Positions 1,740-20,568 of a DNA stretch of 41,085 nt are shown piece after piece; the first letter of the stretch is position 1, and each line of letters starts with the position of its first letter. Where the stretch lies: IMG/VR virus record IMGVR_UViG_3300046499_000339, positions 1-41,085 of that record. The stretch is one strand, 5' to 3'. The notes under the pieces are model-generated. The model saw only the letters and a program-made list of their open reading frames with translations. It made no database searches and was not told the DNA's origin. Source of the DNA: a virus. The position numbers and the translations under genes are program-made.

Positions 1740-1970
1740 CAACCCTGCAACGCGCTAACCCGCATGGACACTGCTTCTTGGCAGGGTAGGCAGGCATGCA
1801 GGGTGCTTTCTGATACCTTGCGAAAAAAAATCAACACCAATCCGAACTCAACAATTCGCGCCTATGTGCGCCGCACCCGGCAAACCCGGCCTACCCTGCT
1901 GCAACCCGCTGGCGGTGCGGGTTGGCGCGTTGCAGGGTTGGCCGTCAACCCTGCTCAACCCTGCAACGCC
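1740..1970. other. Candidate replication origin: nested inverted repeats with A-rich centre
   Basis: An outer 15-bp inverted repeat is perfect: CAACCCTGCAACGCG at 1740-1754 and its reverse complement at 1926-1940. Further same-motif copies start at 1946 (9 bp) and 1956 (14 of 15 bp). An inner 11-bp perfect inverted repeat lies at 1781-1791 / 1889-1899 (GCAGGGTAGGC). The centre (about 1803-1863) is the most AT-rich stretch nearby and holds an A8 tract. The element overlaps the 3' end of the primase-helicase gene. Iteron-like repeats around an AT-rich core beside a primase are typical of phage origins; the function is inferred. Confidence 0.5.
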
Positions 1971-4702
1971 CCGTCCGCACGGATGTCGGCCAGCTCGCGG
2001 AAGCGCGCGATCTTCTGCTCCAGCGTTTCGTCCGGGTCGTCGGCGGGGTTGTCGATGACGAACACCATGCGCGTGGTCTTGCCCTTCTTGCCGACCGCGA
2101 CGTTGCGCTTGGTCTTGTGCTCGCGGCTGGCGATCAGGCCGGCGAACTTGCACAGGGTCAGCGGCTTCTCGCCGCTCCGGTCGCACCAGCGCTTGTACAT
2201 GATGAACAGGTCCTCCGACAGGCAGGAGCAGTACGGGGCATCCAGGTAGCCGTCCTTCCAGGCGCGGTGAAAGCTCATCCAGCTGTTCAGGCCGAACTCG
2301 ATCACGCGTTCCTTGGCCAGGGTCATCGGCGGCTTGGTGTGCTCGTTGAAGCCGTCCAGCGGCAGGGCCAGCAGGAAGTGGTAGAAGGCCTCGCAGCCGC
2401 CGCCGGCGATCGCGGCCGGTACCGCGTCGTAGAATTCGGCGGCCTGCTTGCGGCGCGCCTCGATCACCATCATGCGGCGGTCCTCGAGCTCGATCGGGAT
2501 CGGCTGCGGCTCGTTCGACAGGAAGGCGCTGTTCATGTGGTTGCGCTCGTCGCGCTCCGGCAGGTTCTTCTGGTTGATGCTCATCGACTTGCCGGTGATC
2601 ATGTACTTGAGCGTGCCGTTGTGGCTGTAGCGGTCGTCGCGCGAGAGCACCTCCTCGAACAGCATGAACAGCTTGCGGCTGCGCCAGGCGGTGAAGGTCG
2701 AGTCCAGCTGGTGCTGGCTGGCCACGCCGCCGTAGTCGCCGTAGATCGGCAGCATCACGTCCTGGAAGAACAGCGACTTGCCGGTGCCCTGCTTCTCGCC
2801 GAACATCAGCAGCGCGGTCTGCATCTTGGCGCCAGGGTGCTGCAGCGGGTAGGCCAGCCAGCGCAGGATCCACTCGACGCACTCGTCGGCCTTGTCCTCG
2901 GCTTCGCACAGCGAGGCCAGGAGCGCGAGGATCGGCGCCACCAGTTCCGGCTTGGCCTTCGGCGTCAAGGGCCAGCCGCCGAAGATATTGACGTGGGTGA
3001 CCGGGTCGGCCTGCTGGGTCGGGTCGAACACCAGGTGCTTGGCCTCGATGGTCTTGCGCAGCGCATGCTCCTGCCACTTCGAGGTCAGCTCGGCCGTGTA
3101 GTCGGCGCGCACCGCGCCCAGCGTCATCACCTGCTGGCCGATCGCATCCCACACGGTTTCGGTGCCGCGCAGCAGGGTCAGGTTGTCGAGCATTTCGCCC
3201 AGCTTGCCGCCCCCCGCGCCCCCTTCGACGGCCCGCCCGCCGACCAGGGTCGGCAGCGACTCGCGCAGGATGGTGCGCCGCTTCGGGTCCTTCTCCCATT
3301 GGGTCGCCAGTTCCTTGCCGACCCAGGCGGTGAATGCGCTCTTCTTCAGGCGCTGCTTGCGCAGGCTGTCCCAGACGTCGGTGGTCGGGTAGATCAGGCA
3401 GAAGTGCGACAGCAGCACCTCTGGCGTGGGCACCGCCATCGTGCCCGGCTCGCGTGCGGCGGAAGGTACGGAAGGCACACCGGCGGGCGGCGCGGCGTCG
3501 ACGTAGTCGGGCACCGGACCGACATCGTCCGCAGGCGCCGCCTCCGGGTCGAGGGCGCGGGAGCGGGCCGCGTCGACCTGGGCCCGCACCACCTCGAGCG
3601 ATTCTGCCAGGTACAGGTCGTTGAAGTCGGAATCCTTACTATCCGGGGCGCGCTCAGCAAACTGCGGCCACACCACCGAGGCGTTGCCGACCTCGCGCGC
3701 CGCTGCCCGTGCGCAGCTGATGCCGGCATTCTTGAAGCTGCGGGTCTTGACGCTGCGGCCGGCGCGGATGTCGGCTTCGATGTACTGGGTGCCGCTGTTG
3801 GTGCGCCAGCGCGCGCGCACCGTGACGATATCGCCGCCCGCCGCCTCGAGCCGGTGGTCGGCGTCGTCGACGAGCGGCTCCCAGTGCACCTCGTAGTCCT
3901 CGAGCAGGGCTTCGCGCAGGCGCGCCACGATGCGCATGTCGTCGTCGGCCAGGAACAGCAGGTGCGCGCGCGGGAAGTCGGCGCGCAGCTGGCGTGCCAC
4001 CGGCGCCAGGTTGCCGGCATTGAAGGCGACCATTACCGGCAGCTCGAAGGTGGTGGCCATGCGCACCGTCTCGCCGGTGGCATAGCCTTCGGCCAACGCG
4101 ATCACTGGCGTGTCGGCGCCGATCTGGCCGAGCAGGCAGCAGGCGCCGATCATGTCCATGCCGGAGCTGAAGCGCTTTTTGCCGTCGACGCCGATCTTCT
4201 GCAGCCCGGCCAGCACGGCGCCGTCGCGGCTGTACTTGCGCGCCGGGATCAGCAGCAGGCCCTTGGCGTCGATGCGGGCAAACTCGCAGCCGATACGCTT
4301 GCGCTCCAGGTAGCCGTGCTGCTCGATGTCGGCCGCATTGTCAGCGGCGGCCCAGGCGGCGCGGGCCCGGTTCGCAGCCAGCTCGGCGTCGCGCCGTTTC
4401 TGTTCGGCCTCGGCGCGCTGGTAGTCGAGCTGCTTGCGCTCGGCCGCGGCGCGGTCGGCGGCGCTGACGCCTTCCCAGTCGATGCTGACCGGGATCGCGT
4501 TGTTGTCGGTGCCCTGCCAGATGCCGAAGCTGCCGGTGACCACCTTGCGCCCGTCACTCAGGTCGAGCTCGCGCAGCACGTACCAGGCCTTCTTCTTCGG
4601 CCCGAAGCGGTAGATCTTGCCGTCGAGCAGAGGATGGCCGGGCGGCAGCAGCGGCAGGCCGTGGCCCTGCATCTGGTCGAGGACCTGGCTCAGGTTCGCC
4701 AT
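1955..4702 (-). CDS. Replication primase-helicase (Toprim + superfamily 3-type helicase, DUF5906)
   Basis: A 915-aa protein starting at the ATG at 4702 (MANLSQVLDQ), which overlaps the upstream stop as TGATG. The region at about 195-260 has Toprim signatures: ALAEGYATGETV, FNAGNLAPVA and LLFLADDD. A proline/alanine-rich linker follows at about 380-420. The C-terminal helicase has a Walker A (FGEKQGTGKS, near 630), an FEEVLSRDD acidic motif and the 'FLSNEPQPIPIELEDRR' block typical of the phage DUF5906/D5-like ATPases. No N-terminal zinc-binding primase domain is visible. It probably primes and unwinds at the adjacent repeat-rich origin. A shorter paralogue of its helicase part is encoded at 11768-12487. 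Confidence 0.9.
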   Translation of the reverse strand: MANLSQVLDQMQGHGLPLLPPGHPLLDGKIYRFGPKKKAWYVLRELDLSDGRKVVTGSFGIWQGTDNNAIPVSIDWEGVSAADRAAAERKQLDYQRAEAEQKRRDAELAANRARAAWAAADNAADIEQHGYLERKRIGCEFARIDAKGLLLIPARKYSRDGAVLAGLQKIGVDGKKRFSSGMDMIGACCLLGQIGADTPVIALAEGYATGETVRMATTFELPVMVAFNAGNLAPVARQLRADFPRAHLLFLADDDMRIVARLREALLEDYEVHWEPLVDDADHRLEAAGGDIVTVRARWRTNSGTQYIEADIRAGRSVKTRSFKNAGISCARAAAREVGNASVVWPQFAERAPDSKDSDFNDLYLAESLEVVRAQVDAARSRALDPEAAPADDVGPVPDYVDAAPPAGVPSVPSAAREPGTMAVPTPEVLLSHFCLIYPTTDVWDSLRKQRLKKSAFTAWVGKELATQWEKDPKRRTILRESLPTLVGGRAVEGGAGGGKLGEMLDNLTLLRGTETVWDAIGQQVMTLGAVRADYTAELTSKWQEHALRKTIEAKHLVFDPTQQADPVTHVNIFGGWPLTPKAKPELVAPILALLASLCEAEDKADECVEWILRWLAYPLQHPGAKMQTALLMFGEKQGTGKSLFFQDVMLPIYGDYGGVASQHQLDSTFTAWRSRKLFMLFEEVLSRDDRYSHNGTLKYMITGKSMSINQKNLPERDERNHMNSAFLSNEPQPIPIELEDRRMMVIEARRKQAAEFYDAVPAAIAGGGCEAFYHFLLALPLDGFNEHTKPPMTLAKERVIEFGLNSWMSFHRAWKDGYLDAPYCSCLSEDLFIMYKRWCDRSGEKPLTLCKFAGLIASREHKTKRNVAVGKKGKTTRMVFVIDNPADDPDETLEQKIARFRELADIRADGALQG

Positions 4703-4953
4703 CAGGCCCGGCCCGCCAGCGCCGCGAGTTCGCGCTCGTAATGGGCGCGGATGCGCAGCTTCTCTTGCGCCGTGCGCTTGGCGAGCGGGGGCGCGCACGA
4801 TTGATCTTGCTCAGGCGTATTGAGTGGACTCGGTGCTAGAATTTTTGCTGTCGTGGGGAGGTGTGCACCTTCGTTTTGCCCGGTCTCAAAAAAAGCACGC
4901 TGGATGGCGCTGGCGGCTGCGCTGGCGGCGAGCGCCCTTGGTGCCCGGCTCAT
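4702..4953 (-). CDS. Small hypothetical protein coupled to the primase
   Basis: An 83-aa protein (MSRAPRALAASAAASAIQ...) whose ATG overlaps the stop of the CII-like gene (ATGA) and whose TGA overlaps the primase ATG. It has an Ala-rich N-terminus, a polar middle and a basic helical C-terminus (KRTAQEKLRIRAHYERELAAL). The tight coupling on both sides supports a real gene. No family recognised; a replication accessory role is a guess from position. Confidence 0.7.
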   Translation of the reverse strand: MSRAPRALAASAAASAIQRAFFETGQNEGAHLPTTAKILAPSPLNTPEQDQSCAPPLAKRTAQEKLRIRAHYERELAALAGRA

Positions 4954-5393
4954 CGCTGGGCCATCCCGGCCATGCGGCTGACGACACTCTCGAGCGCCCC
5001 CTCGGCGCGCTTGACGGCCGAGCGGATGCGGTCCAGTTCCTGCGGCGTGATGCGGCCATCGGCCAGCGCCTGGTTGAGCTCGGCGCCGACGTCGCCGTTG
5101 GTGGTCCAGACCCGGGTCACCATTTCCAGCACCGCCATGTCGGGCACCGTGGCGTCGGGGTCGATCTTGACGCACACGTGGCCATGGTTCTCGGCCAGCG
5201 CGTGCAGCACGCTGTGGTCGCCCGTGATCCCCATCGCCTGGTCGACATCGTCGAGCGTGGGCCGGTTATAGGTGTGGTTCGGATTGGCCTTGTTGCGCAG
5301 CACCGCGGCCGACATCCCCATCCGGACCGCCAGGGCATCCACCCCGCCCGGGGCGCCGTGCACGGTTTTATGAAACGCGTCTTTAGGGTTCAT
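4950..5393 (-). CDS. CII-like phage regulatory protein (Phage_CP76 type)
   Basis: A 147-aa protein starting at the ATG at 5393 (MNPKDAFHKTVHGAPGG). The N-terminal 75 residues fit the phage CP76/CII family: 'GGVDALAVRMGMSAAVLRNKANP' forms the helix-turn-helix and is followed by 'LDDVDQAMGITGDHSVLHALA'. The C-terminal 60 residues (EMVTRVWTTNGDVGAELNQALADGRI...) are helical, probably for oligomerisation. Second gene of the leftward operon after the Cro-like gene, the lambda-like position of a lysogeny decision regulator. ORF frames starting further upstream (to 5480) lack support. Confidence 0.8.
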   Translation of the reverse strand: MNPKDAFHKTVHGAPGGVDALAVRMGMSAAVLRNKANPNHTYNRPTLDDVDQAMGITGDHSVLHALAENHGHVCVKIDPDATVPDMAVLEMVTRVWTTNGDVGAELNQALADGRITPQELDRIRSAVKRAEGALESVVSRMAGMAQR

Positions 5394-5504
5394 TCGCCAG
5401 CTCGCAAAAAGAATGTATTCAAGATCAATGGAAAGACGGAAACTTTGCAAAACAACGACAGGGGCACGACATGCACGCACACGATCCAGCTTTGTTATGC
5501 CCGC

Positions 5505-8307: not shown

Positions 8308-8997
8308 ATGAACACCACCACCCGGCCCGAACAGGCCTCGCTTGAGGACGTCGCCGCGGGCGAACAAGGCGGCCCGCACCTGGCCGCGCGCATCAGCGCC
8401 GTCGCCGTCAAGCTCGTCTATCCGTTCATCGCCAAGGATGATGTCCGCTACTACCTGAACGGTATCAACCTGCGCCCCCTCGACGACGGCACCACGATGG
8501 TGGTGGCCACCGACGGCCACCGCTACATCGTGGTGCGCGACCCCTCCGGATTTACGGAAAAGGAACTGATCGTCACGATCAGCAAGGACGCGCTGAAGCA
8601 TGCCGCCAGCGCCAAGCACACGCTCGACGTCATGTCGGATGGCAGCGCCATGATCTCGGACGCCGGTGCGCGACCGCTGTTCATCCAGCCCGGCAACGCA
8701 TTGATCGACGCAACGTTCCCGCGCATCGAGCGCATCGCCAGCGTGGCCAATTACAAGGAAGGCATCGGCGGCGCGGTCAACCCGCGCTACCTGGCCGATG
8801 CGCTGGCGATCGGCAAGACCTTCGGCGAGTCGATCCGCTTCTTCACGCGCGACGCCGACAGCCCGCTGCTGTTCATGCTGGGCGGACTGGGCGACCTGGA
8901 ATGCTTCGGCGGGATCATGAAGCTGCGCGATGTGCTGGATGCGCTGCCGGCGTGGTTTCCGGCGCCGGGCGAGGTCAACAGCCTGGCCGACGTATGA
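8308..8997 (+). CDS. DNA polymerase sliding-clamp-like (beta subunit-like) protein
   Basis: A 229-aa protein. Residues 30-80 (VKLVYPFIAKDDVRYYLNGI then LDDGTTMVVATDGHRYIVV) match the strand order and 'ATDGHR' signature of a DnaN clamp domain. A second clamp-like stretch follows. At 229 aa it is shorter than the roughly 365-aa three-domain DnaN, so it could carry two domains and form a trimeric ring, or act as a decoy for host clamp ligands. It overlaps the methyltransferase start (ATGA). Confidence 0.7.
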   Translation: MNTTTRPEQASLEDVAAGEQGGPHLAARISAVAVKLVYPFIAKDDVRYYLNGINLRPLDDGTTMVVATDGHRYIVVRDPSGFTEKELIVTISKDALKHAASAKHTLDVMSDGSAMISDAGARPLFIQPGNALIDATFPRIERIASVANYKEGIGGAVNPRYLADALAIGKTFGESIRFFTRDADSPLLFMLGGLGDLECFGGIMKLRDVLDALPAWFPAPGEVNSLADV

Positions 8998-10877
8998 GGC
9001 GCGACGACTTCACCCTGCAGCTGGACCTCGGGCACGAGATCCTGGCCGACAACTTCGCCGGCGGCGGCGGGGCCAGCGAGGCGATCCGCCAGGCGTTCGG
9101 GCGCGAGCCAGACATCGCGATCAACCACGATGGCGAGGCGCTGTGCATGCATAACGCCAACCACCCGACCACGCGCCACTACCGCGAGGACGTTTTCCTG
9201 ATCAATCCGACTATCGTCACCGGCAACCGCCCGGTCGGCGCGGTCTGGTTCTCGCCGACCTGCACCCACTTCTCCAAGGCCAAGGGCTTCAACATCCTGA
9301 ACCAGACCACGCGCGGCCTGGCCTGGGTGGTCCTCAAGTGGGGCGTGCAGCTGGCGCCGCGCCTGATGTTCCTCGAGAACGTCGAGGAATTCACCGGCTG
9401 GGGGCCGCTCGACGAGCATGGCCGGCCGATCAAGGCGCACAAGGGCCGCACCTTCCAGGCGTTTGTGCTGGCACTGACCACCGGATTGCCGAAGGACCAC
9501 CCGGACCTGGCTGAGATCCGGGAGACGCTGGGTGCGGGCTTCCCGCTCGAGCGGATCCACGCGGGCCTGGGCTACCAGGTCGAGTGGAAGGTGCTGCGCG
9601 CCTGCGACTATGGCGCGCCGACGATCCGGCGCCGCCTGTTCATGGTGATGCGTCGCGACGGGCATCCAATCGGCTGGCCGGCGCCGACCCATGGCGACCC
9701 GACTTCGCCCGAGGTGAAGTCGGGCAAGCTGCTGCCGTTCGTGACGGCGGCCGACTGCATTGACTGGTCGATTCCGACCCGTTCGATCTTCGAGCGCAAG
9801 AAGCCGCTGGCAGCGGCCACCCTGCGCCGGGTCGGGCGCGGCTTCGAGCGCTATGTGAAGGATGCGGCGCAGCCGTATATCGTCACCAATACTACCGGCC
9901 ATCCCGGTGCGCCAGTCGACCAGCCGGTGCGAACCGTAACGACCGGTGGACACCACGCGCTCGTCGTGCCGCACGTTACCAAGTTCAACACGGGAAGCGT
10001 CGGGCATGCGGTCGATGAGCCCCTCGCCACGATCACCTCGGGCGCCGGCGCTGCCCGCCCAGCGGGCGCCGCACACGGCCTTGGCCTGGTGACCGCCTCG
10101 CTGGTCCAGTACTACAAGAGCGGCAGCCAGAACGTGCCGGTCGACCGGCCGATGCCGACGCTGGTGACCAAGGACCGGGTGGGCGTCACCTGCGCCTACC
10201 TGGCCAAGCATTACGGCGGCAACGAGTCACCCGGCTGGCCACTCGACACGCCAATCAGCACCGTCACCACGCAGGACCATCACGGACTGGTCACGGCGCA
10301 CCTGGTGGGCATCGACAACCAGAGCAGCGGCGCCGGCATCGCGTGGGACGTGGCCCGCCCGCTCAACACGATCACGACCGAGAACCGCTGTGCGGTCGTC
10401 ACCAGCAACCTGGTGAAACTGCGCGGGACCAGCACGGCGGCCGCGACAGACGAGCCGATGGGCACCGTCAGCGCCGGCGGCCAGCACCATGCCGAAGTGC
10501 GCACGACGCTGGCGCGCGCCGGCCACTCCGAGCAGCGCCGCGCCCAGGTCCGCGCGTTCCTGCGCGAGTTCTGTCCGAGCCTGAAGGATGCCGAGCGGCC
10601 CGAGCTGGTGACGATCAACGGCGAACTGTTCGAGGTGGTCGACATCGGGCTGCGCATGCTGGTCGCGCGCGAGCTGGCCAATGCCCAGGGCTTCCCGCGC
10701 GACTACATCCTCGACCCGTTCTACACGGCGGTGGACAAGCGCGGGCGCACGGTGACCAAGCGCCTGTCGGGCAGCGCCCAGGTGCGGATGATCGGCAACA
10801 GCGTCTCGCCGCCGCCGGCGATCGCGCTGATCCGGGAAAACAACGCCCACGAACGCCTGATGGCGCGGGCCGCATGA
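8994..10877 (+). CDS. C5-cytosine DNA methyltransferase with a repeat-built recognition region
   Basis: A 627-aa protein starting at the ATG at 8994 (MRRDDFTLQL), which overlaps the clamp gene stop. Motif I is DNFAGGGGASEAI (about 19-31). Motif IV carries the catalytic Cys in WFSPTCTHFSKAKG (about 84-97). Motif VI is LENVEEF, motif VIII is RRRLFMVMRRDG and motif IX-X is RMIGNSVSPPPAIAL near 600. Between about 303 and 505, where the target recognition domain lies, are roughly six degenerate repeats built on a Val/Ala-Asp-x-Pro-x-x-Thr-Val/Ile-Thr-Thr pattern. No restriction partner is adjacent, so it is probably an orphan protecting phage DNA. The motif IV variant (PTC rather than PPC) is noteworthy. 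Confidence 0.9.
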   Translation: MRRDDFTLQLDLGHEILADNFAGGGGASEAIRQAFGREPDIAINHDGEALCMHNANHPTTRHYREDVFLINPTIVTGNRPVGAVWFSPTCTHFSKAKGFNILNQTTRGLAWVVLKWGVQLAPRLMFLENVEEFTGWGPLDEHGRPIKAHKGRTFQAFVLALTTGLPKDHPDLAEIRETLGAGFPLERIHAGLGYQVEWKVLRACDYGAPTIRRRLFMVMRRDGHPIGWPAPTHGDPTSPEVKSGKLLPFVTAADCIDWSIPTRSIFERKKPLAAATLRRVGRGFERYVKDAAQPYIVTNTTGHPGAPVDQPVRTVTTGGHHALVVPHVTKFNTGSVGHAVDEPLATITSGAGAARPAGAAHGLGLVTASLVQYYKSGSQNVPVDRPMPTLVTKDRVGVTCAYLAKHYGGNESPGWPLDTPISTVTTQDHHGLVTAHLVGIDNQSSGAGIAWDVARPLNTITTENRCAVVTSNLVKLRGTSTAAATDEPMGTVSAGGQHHAEVRTTLARAGHSEQRRAQVRAFLREFCPSLKDAERPELVTINGELFEVVDIGLRMLVARELANAQGFPRDYILDPFYTAVDKRGRTVTKRLSGSAQVRMIGNSVSPPPAIALIRENNAHERLMARAA

Positions 10878-11767: not shown

Positions 11768-12487
11768 ATGAAAGCCTTGTTCCGAAAACTGTGCGTGCAG
11801 CTCGCCTTTGCCTGGAGCGTGCTGAAACGCCCCAGCCCGCAGCCGGTCACCTTCATCAACATCCGGCAGCTGCTGCTGCACCTGTGCGACTACGACGAGG
11901 TCACCTGCCAGTGGGTGATGCGCTGGCTGGCCTACCCGCTACGCAACCCGGGCGCGAAGATGGCGATGGGGATCGTGGTCAATGGCGAGCAAGGCACCGG
12001 CAAGAGCCTGTTCTTCAGCCGGGTGGCGGCGCACCTGTATCCCACCGGCGCCGGGCGCGTCATGCACTGCAGCCAGCTGCACAGCGTGTTCAACCAGTGG
12101 GTCGAGCACACCCGCCTGGCGGTGGTCGAGGGCGCGTTCTCGAAGAAGAACGCGGCGCGCCTGAAGGAGCTGATCGGGTCGGTGTCGACGCAGGTCGAGG
12201 GCAAGAACGTCAAGAGCCAGACGCGCAAGAACCGCAGCAATTTCGTGTTCCTCTCCGGCTCGACCGAGTTTCTGCCGGTGCTTGAAGCCGACCGCCGGCT
12301 GTGCGTGCTCGAGGCCCCGCCGCCGCAGCTGCGCATGTTCTACCAGTCGGTCGACCACGAGATCAGGAATGGCGGCGTGGAGGCGTTCCGCGACTACCTG
12401 CTGCACGGGCTCGACATGGCCGGCTTCGACGAGACCACCCGCCCGCCGGCCAGCGCGGCCCACCGTGCGCTGCGCGACGTGGCGTAG
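11768..12487 (+). CDS. Stand-alone DUF5906-type helicase domain (primase-less paralogue)
   Basis: A 239-aa protein with Walker A VNGEQGTGKS (about 72-81), an acidic Walker B-like VVEGAF, and the block 'NFVFLSGSTEFLPVLEADRR' that parallels 'SAFLSNEPQPIPIELEDRR' of the large primase-helicase. The stretch before Walker A (CQWVMRWLAYPLRNPGAKM) is nearly the same as its counterpart there (WILRWLAYPLQHPGAKM). The Toprim/primase part is missing. It is on the opposite strand and in the opposite early operon. It might be a helicase subunit that mixes with, or regulates, the full-length protein. Confidence 0.8.
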   Translation: MKALFRKLCVQLAFAWSVLKRPSPQPVTFINIRQLLLHLCDYDEVTCQWVMRWLAYPLRNPGAKMAMGIVVNGEQGTGKSLFFSRVAAHLYPTGAGRVMHCSQLHSVFNQWVEHTRLAVVEGAFSKKNAARLKELIGSVSTQVEGKNVKSQTRKNRSNFVFLSGSTEFLPVLEADRRLCVLEAPPPQLRMFYQSVDHEIRNGGVEAFRDYLLHGLDMAGFDETTRPPASAAHRALRDVA

Positions 12488-13078: not shown

Positions 13079-13687
13079 ATGAATATGACCCAAGAGACCA
13101 TTCCGACCGTGCCCGGCACGCCCTTCGCTGGCGGCTTCTACGCCGGCCGGATCCTGATCGCCGGAGTGATGCATGCGCTGATCGTCGCAGCGAAGGCCGA
13201 GGGCGAGCGCGAAGGCGCCTGGCTCGGTTCCGAGCAGCGCGCTGCGGGCGCCGACAGCTACTGCGACGGCATGCAGAACACCGCCGCCATGGCCGATGCG
13301 GGCAGCGAGCTGGCGCAGTGGGCGCGCGGCCTGCGGATCGGCGGCTTCAGCGACTGGTTCATCCCGAGCCAGGACGAACTCGAGATCCTGTACCGCAACC
13401 TGAAACCGACCGCCCGGAACAACTACCTCTACGGCCGCAGCGGCGTGAACGCCTCGGCAGTGCCGCCTACCCTCGCCTACAGCGCTGGCGTACCGTTGCA
13501 GACCGCAGCGCCTGGCTTCGCCGACGATGGCGAGCAGGCCTTCGCCAATGAATGGTACTGGTCGAGCACGCAGCACGCTGCCAGCGACGACTATGCCTGG
13601 ACTCAGGACTTCGACTCCGGCTACCAGACCCGCGACGGCAAGTCGGCCAGCCTCCGCGCTCGCGCGGTCCGCAGATTCGCAATTTAA
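13079..13687 (+). CDS. DGR target protein 1 (DUF1566/C-type-lectin-like variable protein)
   Basis: A 202-aa protein; AGGA precedes the ATG. Residues 85-200 fit the DUF1566 (Lcl-type) version of the C-lectin fold used by many DGR targets: GGFSDWFIPSQDELEILYRNL, then NEWYWSSTQ, then LRARAVRRF at the end. The variable repeat VR1 encodes residues 163-200. Compared with the template, residues 169, 175, 177, 179, 180, 182 and 184-187 are changed, all at template Asn codons. No signal peptide or membrane segment is visible. The ligand is unknown; the gene is far from, and opposite to, the tail genes. Confidence 0.9.
   Translation: MNMTQETIPTVPGTPFAGGFYAGRILIAGVMHALIVAAKAEGEREGAWLGSEQRAAGADSYCDGMQNTAAMADAGSELAQWARGLRIGGFSDWFIPSQDELEILYRNLKPTARNNYLYGRSGVNASAVPPTLAYSAGVPLQTAAPGFADDGEQAFANEWYWSSTQHAASDDYAWTQDFDSGYQTRDGKSASLRARAVRRFAI
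13567..13677 (+). repeat. DGR variable repeat VR1
   Basis: 111 bp collinear with the template at 14693-14803. There are 13 differences, every one at a template adenine (7 A to G, 4 A to C, 2 A to T). The last 40 bases are invariant and contain the 14-bp hairpin CCGCGC-TC-GCGCGG, the expected location of the homing-initiation element. Confidence 0.97.
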
Positions 13688-13718
13688 CCCTTTATCCATT
13701 TCTGAGAGAAGAGACGCC

Positions 13719-14144
13719 ATGAAAAAAACACAAAACATGGAGCAGGCCGGCGGTCGTGCAGCCGGCACCCCGAACAGCAAGGGGCAGTGGATCGCGGAGA
13801 ACCTCACGCCGGGCGAAGTGTACGCCGGCCTGATCCTCGGTGTGGACGGCCAGCCGGACCACCACCTGGTGCTGCTGCCGGGTGAAGCCGAACACGTGAC
13901 GTGGGCAGCTGCCAGGGAATTTGCAGCGAAGGCCGGCGGCGACCTGCCGACGCGGCGCGAGCAGGCGCTGTTGTACGCGAACCTGAAGCACGAGTTCAAA
14001 CCGAACTGGTACTGGTCGGGCGAGCAGCACGCTGCCAACGACGACTATGCCTGGGTTCAGCACTTCGACTACGGCGACCAGAACAACTACTACAAGTCGG
14101 CCAGCCTCCGCGCTCGCGCGGTCCGCAGATTAGTTATTCAGTAA
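13719..14144 (+). CDS. DGR target protein 2 (DUF1566/C-type-lectin-like variable protein)
   Basis: A 141-aa protein from the ATG at 13719, 31 bp after target 1. Shorter than target 1 but with the same layout: GEVYAGLILG near 31-40, a 'TWAAAREFAAKAGGDLPTRRE' helix near 67-87, then NWYWSGEQ and the variable end LRARAVRRLVIQ. Residues 113, 115, 117, 118, 120, 124 and 125 differ from the template. It is nearer to the template than target 1 is, which means fewer or more recent retargeting events. Confidence 0.9.
   Translation: MKKTQNMEQAGGRAAGTPNSKGQWIAENLTPGEVYAGLILGVDGQPDHHLVLLPGEAEHVTWAAAREFAAKAGGDLPTRREQALLYANLKHEFKPNWYWSGEQHAANDDYAWVQHFDYGDQNNYYKSASLRARAVRRLVIQ
14024..14132 (+). repeat. DGR variable repeat VR2
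   Basis: 109 bp collinear with template 14696-14804. There are 8 differences, all at template adenines (3 A to G, 4 A to T, 1 A to C). The 3' invariant block is identical to VR1 and the template. Confidence 0.97.
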
Positions 14145-14164
14145 TTTAGCCCTTTTTCATCAGC

Positions 14165-14518
14165 ATGGCACTCCATACCCAACTGCCGATTTACAAGGCC
14201 GCCTACGACCTCCTCGACATCGTTACGGACCTCGCCAAGAACATGCCTCGGGACTTCAAGGCATCGATCGGCGGGAAGCTCCGTGACGAGGTGGTCGCAG
14301 TCACGATCTTGATCTTCCGCGCCAACACGGCGCGGGAGAAGGCGCCGCACCTGCAAGGGCTCACCGAGCGCCTGCAGGTGGCCGAACTGCTGCTGCGACT
14401 CTCGCGCGACAAGCGCCTGATCGCAGTCAAGCAGTACGCGCGCGCCGTCGAGCTGACCACCAGCATCGGCAAGCAGGCCAGTGGATGGCGCCGCTCCGCA
14501 ATGTCGCCCGCTTCGTGA
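14165..14518 (+). CDS. avd: Avd accessory variability determinant
   Basis: A 117-aa, all-helical, basic protein (MALHTQLPIYKAAYDLLDIV then DLAKNMPRDFKASIGGKLRD, then RLIAVKQYARAVELTTSIGK). This is the four-helix-bundle (23S-intervening-protein-like) profile of Avd, which forms a pentamer that binds the reverse transcriptase and template RNA. It sits 20 bp after target 2 and upstream of the template repeat, the classical order target-avd-TR-RT. Confidence 0.9.
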   Translation: MALHTQLPIYKAAYDLLDIVTDLAKNMPRDFKASIGGKLRDEVVAVTILIFRANTAREKAPHLQGLTERLQVAELLLRLSRDKRLIAVKQYARAVELTTSIGKQASGWRRSAMSPAS

Positions 14519-14692
14519 TGGTCACGGCCACCATGACTGTGCGAACTTTTAATCTGGTCGTGCCGCTGGCCCACGAGGCCACCGCCATGCGCACCGCAGA
14601 TACCACCCGACATAGTTTGGGCAGGTCTGGCGCAGTTTCCCCGCTGATCGGCCATTGCGGCCTTCGGCTGGGCGACGTAGATAGCACGAACA
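14519..14692 (+). other. Non-coding leader between avd and the template repeat
   Basis: Open in the reverse transcriptase frame, but its translation has no protein-like character and no match to reverse transcriptase N-termini. In studied DGRs the sequence flanking the template on the avd side is part of the structured template RNA, so this stretch is probably transcribed RNA rather than coding. Confidence 0.5.
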
Positions 14693-14804
14693 CACGCAGC
14701 ACGCTGCCAACGACGACTATGCCTGGAATCAGAACTTCAACAACGGCAACCAGAACAACAACAACAAGTCGGCCAGCCTCCGCGCTCGCGCGGTCCGCAG
14801 ATTA
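14693..14804 (+). repeat. DGR template repeat (TR)
   Basis: Matches VR1 and VR2. It is rich in AAC/AAT: read in the target frame it encodes ten diversifiable Asn codons within a 19-codon stretch (NDDYAWNQNF then NNGNQNNNNK). Asn codons AAY allow any class of side chain but no stop codon when adenines mutate. The 3' end carries the hairpin CCGCGC-TC-GCGCGG (14780-14793). It lies 40 bp upstream of the first conserved reverse transcriptase residues. Confidence 0.97.
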
Positions 14805-14844
14805 CACCGGTTGCCACCATGCTGACTTTTCTTTCGAGGAGTTG

Positions 14845-15915
14845 GTGCAAGCCTACCTCGACTGCCGCAAGACCAAACGCAATACCGCCAGCGCCGCCGC
14901 GTTCGAACAGGATCAGGAGCGCAACCTGGTACGCCTGCGCGACGAGCTGATCGACGGCAGCTACCGGCCCGGCCGGTCGATCTGCTTCGTCGTCACCCGA
15001 CCCAGGGCGCGCGAGGTGTGGGCGGCCGACTTCCGCGACCGGATCGTGCACCACCTGCTGTACAACCGCATCGCGCAGCGCTTCTACCGCTCGTTCATCA
15101 CCGACACCTGTGCCTGCATCCCGGGTCGCGGCACGCTGTATGCAGCGCAGCGGCTGGAAGCGAAGATCCGCAGCGCCTCCCAGAATTGGAGCCGACCGCT
15201 GTGGTACCTGAAATGCGACCTGGCCAACTTCTTTGTCGCGATCGACAAGCACGTGCTGTGGCGCCAGATCGCCGCCCGGGTAACCGAGCCATGGTGGCAG
15301 TGGCTGGCCGGCGTGATCCTGTTCCATGACCCGCGCACGGACTTCGAATTGCGCGGCGACCCACGCCTGACCGAGCGGGTGCCGCCGCACAAGCGGCTGG
15401 CCAGCCAGCCTGCGCACCGCGGGCTGGCGATCGGGAACCTGTCGAGCCAGTTTTTCGCCAATATCTACCTGGATGCGCTCGACCAGCATGCGAAGCACCA
15501 GCTGCGGGCCCGCCATTACGTGCGCTACGTCGACGACTTCATCCTGCTGCACGAGTCGCCGCAGTGGTTGAACGCTGCGCTGGCCAGTATCGATGCGTTC
15601 CTGCCGGCGACCCTGGGCGCTCGCCTGAACCCGACCAAGACGATCCTGCAGCCGGTGGCGCGCGGGGTCGACTTCGTCGGCCACGTGATCAAGCCGTGGC
15701 ACACCCGCGCCAGGCGGCGCACGGTGGGGCAGGCGATCACGCGGCTGAGCACGATGGACGGGGGCGACGTCTATGCCGCGGCCAACAGCTACTTCGGCCT
15801 GCTTCGGCAGTCGAACAGCAGTCATGTGGACTGCACGCTGCTAGCCCGGGCTGTGCTACGGCGCGGCCATGCCGTGAATGGCACTTTTACCAAAGCCTAT
15901 AGGAAGAAATCATGA
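14845..15915 (+). CDS. DGR reverse transcriptase
   Basis: A reverse transcriptase of 356 aa from the minimal in-frame GTG. Motifs: EVWAADFRDRIVHHLLYNRI (RT1-2), LKCDLANFFVAIDK with the catalytic Asp (motif A), IGNLSSQFFANIYLDAL (the DGR-specific version of the RT4 motif) and YVDD at residues 228-231 (motif C). Conserved DGR sequence already begins at FSFEELVQAYLDCRKTKRN, codons 14827 onward, upstream of any in-frame ATG; the nearest ATG (14819) is one base out of frame, and the in-frame ATGs lie at 14587 or earlier, across the template. The true start is therefore unresolved. The stop overlaps the next gene (ATGA). Confidence 0.92.
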   Translation: MQAYLDCRKTKRNTASAAAFEQDQERNLVRLRDELIDGSYRPGRSICFVVTRPRAREVWAADFRDRIVHHLLYNRIAQRFYRSFITDTCACIPGRGTLYAAQRLEAKIRSASQNWSRPLWYLKCDLANFFVAIDKHVLWRQIAARVTEPWWQWLAGVILFHDPRTDFELRGDPRLTERVPPHKRLASQPAHRGLAIGNLSSQFFANIYLDALDQHAKHQLRARHYVRYVDDFILLHESPQWLNAALASIDAFLPATLGARLNPTKTILQPVARGVDFVGHVIKPWHTRARRRTVGQAITRLSTMDGGDVYAAANSYFGLLRQSNSSHVDCTLLARAVLRRGHAVNGTFTKAYRKKS

Positions 15916-16614: not shown

Positions 16615-17634
16615 TCAATCGAGCAGGTCGGCCATCTTCTCCGCTGTCTCGTTGTAGTAGATCTGCAGCTTGCGCAGGTCCTTGTGGCCGGTCATCCGCG
16701 CCAGGTCGAGCACGTTGGGGAACTTCTTCGCCAACCGGGTGACCGCCAGGTGGCGGGTGTCGTGGAACGTGGCGCCCTCGATGCCGGCCCGCTCCCGCGC
16801 CTTCCGGAACAGCGCGTCGAGCGTCGCCGCAGTCATCTGGAACAACGGCCGCCCGTCCGGTACCGGCGGCAGCAGGCCCAGCAGCTCGAGCGCGCGCTTC
16901 GACTGCGGCACATCGCGCCGTGACCCGTTCTTCGTCACCTCGGCCCGCAGGCGCGCGCTGCGGCCCACCAGGTCGGCCGCCGTCAGGGCGCAGATCTCGC
17001 CGGCGCGCATCGCGGTCTCGATCGCATACAGGAACGCCACGGCCACGCGCTGGTAGCCGGTCGCGGCCGGGTCGGACTGCCCCAGCTCGAGCCCGCATGC
17101 CAGGCACAGCCGGGCGATCTCATCGTCGCTGTAGAGCCGCTCGCGCGGCGCCGGGTCCTGCGGCCGGCGCACGTCGGTGGTCGGGCTCTTGGCGATCCAC
17201 TTCCATTCCCGCACCGCGGACGAGAACACGTGCGACAGCAGGTTCAGGTCGCGGTTGATGGACGAGCCCTTGACCTGGTCGACCTTGAGCCGGTGGTCGC
17301 GCCATTTGCCCAGCACGTCGGACGTCACGTCCATCAGCCGCATGTCCTGCAGGGCGGCGCCGTCGATCTCGGTGCGCCCGATCGCGGCCAGCCGCAGCGC
17401 CTCCTGGCGGTGGCCGCGCTTGGTGGCCGAGACCTCTTTCTCGTAGCGCCGGAAGGCATCGTCGACGGTGCGGTGGCGCTGCACGCCGGTGGCCGCGTCT
17501 TCGCGGATCTCGGTCTCGCGCCTGGCGGCCCAGCTTACTGCTTCGGCCCTGGTCGTAAACGTCTTGTTCTCGCGCACCCCAAGAACCGCGATCTGTGCAC
17601 GCCAGCCCGTCTCACGCTTCTTAATCGATGCCAT
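16615..17634 (-). CDS. int: Tyrosine recombinase integrase
   Basis: A 339-aa protein. An N-terminal arm-type DNA-binding segment (1-45), a SAM-like core-binding domain (about 60-150) and a catalytic domain with Arg210 (TAMRAGEIC), His291 and Arg294 (HDTRH), His317 (GHKD) and the tyrosine at 326 or 327 (LQIYYNE). Full length for the family. It should catalyse attP x attB recombination; the proposed attP lies 180 bp upstream of the start codon, and three 8-bp repeats lie in between. Confidence 0.95.
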   Translation of the reverse strand: MASIKKRETGWRAQIAVLGVRENKTFTTRAEAVSWAARRETEIREDAATGVQRHRTVDDAFRRYEKEVSATKRGHRQEALRLAAIGRTEIDGAALQDMRLMDVTSDVLGKWRDHRLKVDQVKGSSINRDLNLLSHVFSSAVREWKWIAKSPTTDVRRPQDPAPRERLYSDDEIARLCLACGLELGQSDPAATGYQRVAVAFLYAIETAMRAGEICALTAADLVGRSARLRAEVTKNGSRRDVPQSKRALELLGLLPPVPDGRPLFQMTAATLDALFRKARERAGIEGATFHDTRHLAVTRLAKKFPNVLDLARMTGHKDLRKLQIYYNETAEKMADLLD

Positions 17635-19779: not shown

Positions 19780-20568
19780 CTAGAACAGCCCTACCGGATC
19801 CTCCGAACGGTCCCAACTGTAGATGATCACCTCGGATCGATCGACCGTCTTACCAGGGCCGCCGACGATATACGAGATCGGGACCGTGTCCATCTGGAAC
19901 CCGGCGAAAATCCGACGGATGTCTGGATGGTCGTTCAGGCTCACGATCGCCTTGCCCTGTATCCTGGTCAGTAACTCGGCCATCTTTTCATACTCAGCCA
20001 GACCAAAATCCACCCCATAGCCTTCGGTCTCCCAATACGGCGGGTCGAGGTAGAACAGGGTGTGGGGACGATCGTAGCGCTCGATGAGCTTGTACCAGTC
20101 CATGTTTTCGATGTACGTACCAGCCAGGCGCAAATGTGCGGCCGAGAGGTTTTCCTCGATGCGCAGCAGATTCACCGGCGGCGTGGTCGTCGCGGTCCCC
20201 CAGTTTTGCCCATCGACCTTGCCACCAAATGCCTGCTGCTGCAGATAGAAAAACCGGGCCGCGCGCTGAATGTCGGTCAGGGTATCGGGTGGCGTGATCT
20301 GGTGCCACTTGAACACTTCCCTGCTCGACAAGGCGAACTTAAAGTGACGCACGAACTCCTCGAGGTGGTTCTGAACCACCCGATAAAGTCGGACCAGCTC
20401 GCCATTGATGTCGTTGATCACCTCCACCTCGGCCGGCGGGCGCATGAAGTACAGCGCCGCGCCGCCCGCGAACACCTCGACGTAGCACTTGTGAGGCGGG
20501 AACTGCGGAATCAGATGATCAGCGAGGCGGCGCTTGCCGCCCATCCAGGGAATAATAGGTATTGCCAT
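19780..20568 (-). CDS. N6-adenine DNA methyltransferase (D12 class, Dam-like)
   Basis: A 262-aa protein. The AdoMet-binding motif is near the N-terminus (PWMGGKRRLADHL then VEVFAGGAALYF), 'INDINGELVRLYRVVQNH' follows, and the catalytic DPPY motif is in FYLDPPYWETEGYG near residue 175. This is the D12/Dam order. No restriction partner is adjacent. AAGG lies upstream of the ATG. It is convergent with the Tae4-like gene, 22 bp away, and probably protects phage DNA together with the C5 enzyme. Confidence 0.92.
   Translation of the reverse strand: MAIPIIPWMGGKRRLADHLIPQFPPHKCYVEVFAGGAALYFMRPPAEVEVINDINGELVRLYRVVQNHLEEFVRHFKFALSSREVFKWHQITPPDTLTDIQRAARFFYLQQQAFGGKVDGQNWGTATTTPPVNLLRIEENLSAAHLRLAGTYIENMDWYKLIERYDRPHTLFYLDPPYWETEGYGVDFGLAEYEKMAELLTRIQGKAIVSLNDHPDIRRIFAGFQMDTVPISYIVGGPGKTVDRSEVIIYSWDRSEDPVGLF

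What the first reader, a model, noticed from the sequence alone, without database searches (positions are those of the whole stretch)
13079..15915. Complete diversity-generating retroelement with two tandem target genes
TR (14693-14804), VR1 (13567-13677) and VR2 (14024-14132) align without gaps. I count 13 differences for VR1 and 8 for VR2, and all 21 are at template adenines with no change elsewhere; this is the defining signature of adenine-specific mutagenic homing. Avd and an RT with the DGR-type IGNLSSQ and YVDD motifs complete the system. Two targets served by one template, in a temperate phage, is a less common arrangement than the single target of phage BPP-1.
Basis: partly seen in the sequence, partly recalled or inferred. 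Interest (0 to 1): 0.95.

Follow-up and report, generated by a model that had tools for sequence, protein, structure and literature searches.

The report
Retroelement template inside polymerase reading frame
This phage carries a mutation machine that rewrites two small lectin-like genes from one template; the template turns out to lie inside the reading frame of the reverse transcriptase that copies it, and it carries its structured RNA handle on the opposite side from the one well-studied example.

Summary
In detail: TR 14693-14804 matches VR1 and VR2 without gaps, with 13 and 8 differences, all at template adenines. Avd, a DGR-type RT and two Lcl_C (C-type lectin) targets are present, in a temperate phage (integrase, CII). 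Near-identical relatives differ almost only in VRs at template adenines, so the family is active. Two or more targets is the norm in this clade (119 of 137 loci). A DGR by mechanism, an uncharacterised variant in RNA layout. TR overlap with annotated RT ORFs was noted in 2012 (PMC3521204); frame conservation and in-TR initiation appear new.

The parts
13079..13687 (+). Target gene 1 (202 aa), Lcl_C / C-type lectin fold, carries VR1 at its 3' end
   Evidence: Pfam PF07603 E 7e-12; AlphaFold pLDDT 94, pTM 0.91; best PDB match Legionella Lcl C-terminal domain 8q4e, E 2e-4
13567..13677 (+). VR1
   Evidence: 13 differences from TR, all at TR adenines
13681..13704 (+). Tandem 8-nt repeat after VR1 (AATTTAAC CCTTTATC CATTTCTG), contains the target stop codon; candidate target-site element
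   Evidence: 8-nt periodicity after VRs of the clade, absent after TR; function inferred only
13719..14144 (+). Target gene 2 (141 aa), Lcl_C-like, carries VR2
   Evidence: PF07603 E 3e-7, below the curated cut-off; phrog_4245 shared with target 1
14024..14132 (+). VR2
   Evidence: 8 differences from TR, all at TR adenines
14134..14157 (+). Tandem 8-nt repeat after VR2 (TTATTCAG TAATTTAG CCCTTTTT)
14165..14518 (+). avd (117 aa)
   Evidence: PF22296 bAvd above cut-off; phrog_3206 E 5e-33
14502..14696 (+). RT-15 structured RNA (RF03018), abuts TR on its 5' side; overlaps the last 17 nt of avd
   Evidence: cmscan 178.7 bits vs gathering 82, E 1e-44; same place in 25 of 25 relatives tested
14518..14520 (+). 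Candidate RT start 1: ATG overlapping the avd stop (TGATG), in RT frame
   Evidence: sequence; 42 of 153 loci have this overlap, 41 of them in RT frame, but shared ancestry
14693..14804 (+). TR, inside the RT reading frame
   Evidence: frame analysis
14719..14721 (+). Candidate RT start 2: ATG inside TR, the last in-frame ATG before conserved RT residues
14719..15915 (+). DGR reverse transcriptase; conserved fold starts at about 14821, the first 31 residues from 14719 are predicted disordered
   Evidence: RVT_1, phrog_1423 E 4e-116, alignment, model
16615..17634 (-). Integrase (context: temperate phage)
   Evidence: phrog_1 E 2e-47
4950..5480 (-). CII-like transcription activator (context)
   Evidence: phrog_101 E 5e-32

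Best explanation
An active-type diversity-generating retroelement of the RT-15 clade. Shown by sequence: one TR serves two lectin-fold targets by adenine-only changes; the transcript order is avd, RT-15 RNA, TR, RT; the RT reading frame includes at least the 3' part of TR, so the RT starts at an ATG inside TR (14719) or upstream of it (14518). Inferred: the RT-Avd complex recognises the RT-15 fold 5' of TR, copies TR with errors at adenines, and the cDNA replaces VR1 or VR2; the 8-nt repeats after each VR, missing after TR, mark the VRs as recipients and protect TR. Because template and RT start share one stretch of RNA, translating the RT and using that RNA as template cannot happen at once on the same molecule, which could limit RT output (inferred, untested).
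For: Adenine-only differences. Activity in relatives: L015 vs L016 differ at 14 VR positions, all template A, 0 of 4220 outside; L079 vs L081 14 at A, 0 of 72 at non-A, 1 of 2033 outside; L005 vs L014, each with an RT about 89% identical to the window's, 28 at A, 3 of 154 at non-A, TR identical. Reading frame: of 31 inferred changes in TR-RT spacing, 27 are multiples of 3; exceptions are a clade of 7 (GTG/ATG at -6), L120 (ATG at -6), L136 and L140 (another gene between TR and RT, RT with its own start). Control interval avd stop to RT-15 anchor: 8 of 30. Control DGR clades: phases mixed (12/3/6, 12/6/25, 32/15/21) and a start codon between TR and RT in 129 of 139. RT frame has no stop between avd and RT in most loci while the other frames usually have several. 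RT-15 is 5' of TR in 25 of 25 relatives, even where TR is 850-1150 nt from RT. No lowered synonymous variation in RT codons 1-60, so no sign of a spacer RNA hidden in the gene.
Against: No translation or RNA data. No Shine-Dalgarno-like sequence seen before the in-TR ATGs (contexts). The TR-encoded peptide shows little amino-acid constraint: third-position share of TR changes 51% vs 56% in control clades, and it is predicted disordered. Substitutions in the RT-15 stretch show no RT-frame codon pattern (163/171/195), so reading from avd through RT-15 is not supported as a selected protein. Start on a rare codon such as CTG or ATT is not excluded. The window phage itself has no near-identical isolate to show its own activity.
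Confidence: 0.85

Rival explanations
1. Plain BPP-1-like DGR: RT starts at a TTG or GTG just downstream of TR (14842 or 14845) and the open frame through TR is an accident of high GC.
For: The window has TTG at +21 and GTG at +24 of the conserved RT region, preceded by GAGGAG. High-GC frames are often open by chance.
Against: Many relatives lack any ATG/GTG/TTG between the in-TR ATG and the conserved helix; the conserved FEELVQAY helix begins before that GTG; spacing changes keep the frame 27 of 31 times, with the exceptions explained.
Confidence: 0.12
2. The RT is translated by coupling from avd (TGATG at 14518) through the whole RT-15 and TR, giving a 465-residue protein.
For: In-frame TGATG/TAATG in 41 loci; frame open from avd to RT in most loci; in L136 and L140 the frame through TR ends with an ATGA overlap onto the next gene.
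Against: In about 27 loci the frame is closed just upstream of TR; avd to RT-15 spacing is not kept in multiples of three (8 of 30); no codon-position pattern in RT-15.
Confidence: 0.3
3. Decayed or inactive DGR whose VRs are frozen relics.
For: No isolate pair for this exact phage.
Against: All genes intact; zero non-adenine TR/VR differences; close relatives active.
Confidence: 0.03
4. The 8-nt repeats after VRs are simply AT-rich spacer or multi-frame stop signals without a role in target choice.
For: They contain the target stop codon, and steps of 8 nt shift the frame.
Against: Strict 8-nt spacing (290 core pairs at 8, next most frequent 36 at 4), lag-8 match 0.455 vs 0.27 shuffled and 0.209 after TR; a different 8-nt or 7-nt unit in two other DGR clades.
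Confidence: 0.4

Closest known systems
Bordetella phage BPP-1 DGR (mtd-avd-TR-brt)
   Same: Avd, RT, TR upstream of RT, adenine-only VR differences, C-type lectin-type target, temperate phage element
   Different: BPP-1 has one target, a 144-nt gap between TR and brt filled by the Phage_DGR RNA RF03022, its own brt start, and a hairpin after VR; here RT-15 lies 5' of TR, no 3' spacer, TR in RT frame, no hairpin
RT-15 RNA family (Rfam RF03018)
   Same: Window matches the full model (178.7 bits)
   Different: Rfam lists it as an sRNA; here it is tied to the exact 5' edge of a DGR TR
DGRs of Pseudomonas phage Cruim01, Burkholderia phage Magia, Shewanella phage vB_Sb_QDWS and proteobacterial prophages
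   Same: 60-69% identical RT, RT-15, two targets, TR 10-27 nt before the RT domain
   Different: Hosts and number of targets; annotators place the RT start upstream of, inside, or after TR
DiGReF group 3 DGRs (PMC3521204)
   Different: Noted only as an annotation overlap, with the conclusion that arrangement does not matter; no test of reading frame
Retrons (structured RNA 5' of the template; from general knowledge)
   Same: Order of handle then template on the RNA
   Different: Branch G and paired end repeats not tested; RT is DGR-type

Membership tests
Diversity-generating retroelement | TR/VR repeat pair with differences confined to template adenines | tested here: met
   21 of 21 differences at A
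Diversity-generating retroelement | DGR-type reverse transcriptase | tested here: met
   RVT_1, phrog_1423, motifs IGNLSSQ and YVDD, alignment with Brt
Diversity-generating retroelement | VR at the 3' end of a C-type lectin-fold target gene | tested here: met
   Lcl_C and PDB 8q4e match for target 1; target 2 below the Pfam cut-off but same PHROG
Diversity-generating retroelement | Avd accessory protein (common, not universal) | tested here: met
   bAvd PF22296
Diversity-generating retroelement | Mutagenic retrohoming activity | tested here: inconclusive
   Shown in close relatives by sequence comparison; not observable for this phage
BPP-1-type DGR | Structured spacer RNA between TR and RT (RF03022) | tested here: not met
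   About 18 nt between TR and RT domain; no RF03022 hit; RT-15 on the 5' side (vs 62, 66)
BPP-1-type DGR | GC-rich hairpin shortly after VR | tested here: not met
   None within 80 nt of VR1 or VR2; present at 104 of 255 VRs of the clade
RT-15 RNA | Match to covariance model above gathering score | tested here: met
   178.7 vs 82 bits
Retron | Branch G 2'-OH priming with paired a1/a2 ends | not testable with these tools
   needs RNA/cDNA mapping

The most novel reading that the evidence does not exclude
In RT-15 DGRs the template RNA is built the other way round from BPP-1: the handle is 5' of TR, so cDNA synthesis must be primed without a 3' spacer (by a looped-back, retron-like arrangement or by nicked target DNA), and the RT start codon inside TR makes RT synthesis and template use mutually exclusive on one RNA, a built-in brake. 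Target choice is made by an 8-nt tandem repeat after VR.
Probability: 0.3. Interest if true: 0.8.

Novelty: new variant of a known kind. Interest (0 to 1): 0.5.

Why it matters
The detailed picture of DGR cDNA priming comes from BPP-1, where a spacer 3' of TR recruits RT-Avd and primes the cDNA (PMC12875486). A large, active clade in proteobacterial phages and prophages has no such spacer and carries its RNA fold on the other side. That makes the question of how DGR cDNA is primed directly testable by comparison. A template that is also coding sequence for its own polymerase suggests a way of holding RT output low. It also means that RT genes of this clade are annotated inconsistently.

Tried and rejected
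(1) A BPP-1-like spacer hidden in the first RT codons: rejected, synonymous variation there is not lowered (ratios 0.94-0.99 over codons 1-60). (2) Translation through RT-15 from avd as a selected protein: not supported. (3) Strong protein-level constraint on the TR-coded RT terminus: not supported. (4) Further VRs elsewhere in the record: none. (5) Megablast of 25 kb against phage records: no match. (6) A hairpin after VR1/VR2: none. (7) Base-pairing between RT-15 and the TR 3' end, or between the RT-15 single strand and the 8-nt repeats: looked at by eye only, nothing convincing, not claimed. (8) My first automatic choice of VR reading frame mixed up frames; it was replaced by a motif-anchored frame. 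(9) One locus (L052) is wrongly counted as 'closed upstream' because of a wrong TR boundary; I count 27, not 28. (10) The paper that described RT-15 is not held, and a search for its name found nothing, so I could not see what its authors said about TR.

Full report
OBSERVATION. The window is a whole IMG/VR virus record of 41,085 bases. TR and VRs align as stated; 13 of 13 and 8 of 8 differences are at template adenines, and the TR finds no other copies in the record. Avd and RT are confirmed by Pfam and PHROGs. Both targets share phrog_4245; target 1 is a confident Lcl C-terminal (C-type lectin) fold, and target 2 scores just below the Pfam cut-off.

CONTEXT. An integrase (16615-17634, -) and a CII-like activator (4950-5480, -) support a temperate phage. 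The DGR lies on the plus strand among methyltransferase, RusA-like and primase-like genes, while head and tail genes are on the minus strand at about 26-41 kb and near 1 kb. The targets are therefore not beside a tail fibre gene, so a role in host attachment, as for BPP-1 Mtd, is not shown by position.

RELATIVES AND ACTIVITY. RT searches gave 160 related loci, mainly phages and prophages of Burkholderiales and Pseudomonas. TR/VR pairs with adenine-only changes were found in nearly all. Of 137 loci with enough upstream DNA, 119 have two or more VRs. Near-identical loci differ almost only at VR positions opposite template A: L015/L016 14 such changes and none in 4220 other bases; L079/L081 14 and 1 of 2033; L005/L014 28, against 3 of 154 non-A VR positions and 27 of 5767 outside, with identical TR. 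The clade is active.

RNA LAYOUT. The stretch 14502-14696 is RT-15 RNA. In 25 of 25 relatives tested it ends within a few bases of the TR start, also in L136 and L140 where another gene sits between TR and RT. So RT-15 belongs to TR, not to the RT gene. In BPP-1 the RNA family Phage_DGR, and in BalMu-1 the family RT-14, lie on the 3' side of TR; the BPP-1 spacer recruits RT-Avd and primes the cDNA (PMC12875486). Here only about 18 nt separate TR from the RT domain, and RT codons 1-60 show no extra synonymous conservation. The handle thus seems to sit on the opposite side of the template.

TR IN THE RT FRAME. In the window no ATG lies between the in-TR ATG (14719) and the conserved RT region; there are only TTG and GTG inside the conserved helix. 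Measured from a fixed TR codon, the TR-RT distance takes values 4, 10, 13, 16, 19, 22, 25, 28, 31, 34, all in one phase, in every scored locus except ten. On the RT tree 27 of 31 spacing changes are multiples of three. The four exceptions are the clade with GTG/ATG at -6, L120 with ATG at -6, and L136 and L140 whose RT has its own start. The neighbouring interval avd stop to RT-15 anchor gives 8 of 30, as chance predicts. In three control DGR clades the phase is mixed and a start codon lies between TR and RT in 129 of 139 loci. Where the frame is closed just upstream of TR (about 27 loci, mainly Janthinobacterium and Pseudomonas groups), an in-frame ATG inside TR is always present. A translational constraint on the TR-RT join is the only explanation I find. 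The peptide itself looks unconstrained and disordered, so TR probably serves as start site and leader rather than as a functional protein segment. Whether this phage uses 14719 or 14518 is open; the RT-15 stretch shows no codon pattern.

AFTER THE VRs. VRs of the clade are followed by a tandem 8-nt repeat (core ATTYA): 290 of the core-to-core spacings are 8, lag-8 match is 0.455 against 0.27 in shuffles and 0.209 after TR. Lagaffe-like DGRs show another 8-nt unit (lag 8 0.462), phiARM81-like ones a 7-nt unit (lag 7 0.405), BPP-1-like ones none. Since TR lacks it, it may mark the recipient, as the hairpin does in BPP-1 (PMC3240598); this is inference. No hairpin follows VR1 or VR2.

KNOWN OR NEW. 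DGRs, multiple VRs and DUF1566/Lcl targets are known (PMC3521204, PMC6642488, PMC8144416). RT-15 is in Rfam. Overlap of TR with the annotated RT ORF was listed as 'group 3' in 2012 (PMC3521204), without a reading-frame test. I found no report of frame conservation, of RT starts inside TR, of the 5' position of RT-15 relative to TR, or of the repeats after VR; many subscription papers, including the one that described RT-15, could not be read. I file it as a DGR, a new variant of a known kind.

Noticed in passing
window 11768-12487 (+) and 1955-4798 (-): Two primase-like genes: a full one on the minus strand and a short plus-strand ORF matching only the C-terminal part of primase profiles, perhaps a duplicated fragment.
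   Followed up: no
window 8901-10877 (+) and 19780-20568 (-): Two DNA methyltransferase genes, one in the same early block as the DGR.
   Followed up: no
L136:5180-5944 and L140:4877-5959: A gene inserted between TR and RT (by eye PAPS-reductase-like); in both loci the reading frame through RT-15 and TR ends with an ATGA overlap onto its start.
   Followed up: partly
L173 (Pseudoalteromonas phage ACA1) 3737-5002: In a distant P2-like DGR the annotated RT ORF also spans the TR, with only ATG -264 and TTG -201 as starts; a possible second origin of the overlap.
   Followed up: partly
L174 after VR; L178-L194; L282-L293: Short tandem repeats of 8 or 7 nt after VR in other DGR clades, with clade-specific units.
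   Followed up: partly
L164, L165, L166, L167, L168: Public annotations of RT-15-clade RTs disagree on the start: upstream of TR, inside TR, or well inside the RT domain.
   Followed up: yes
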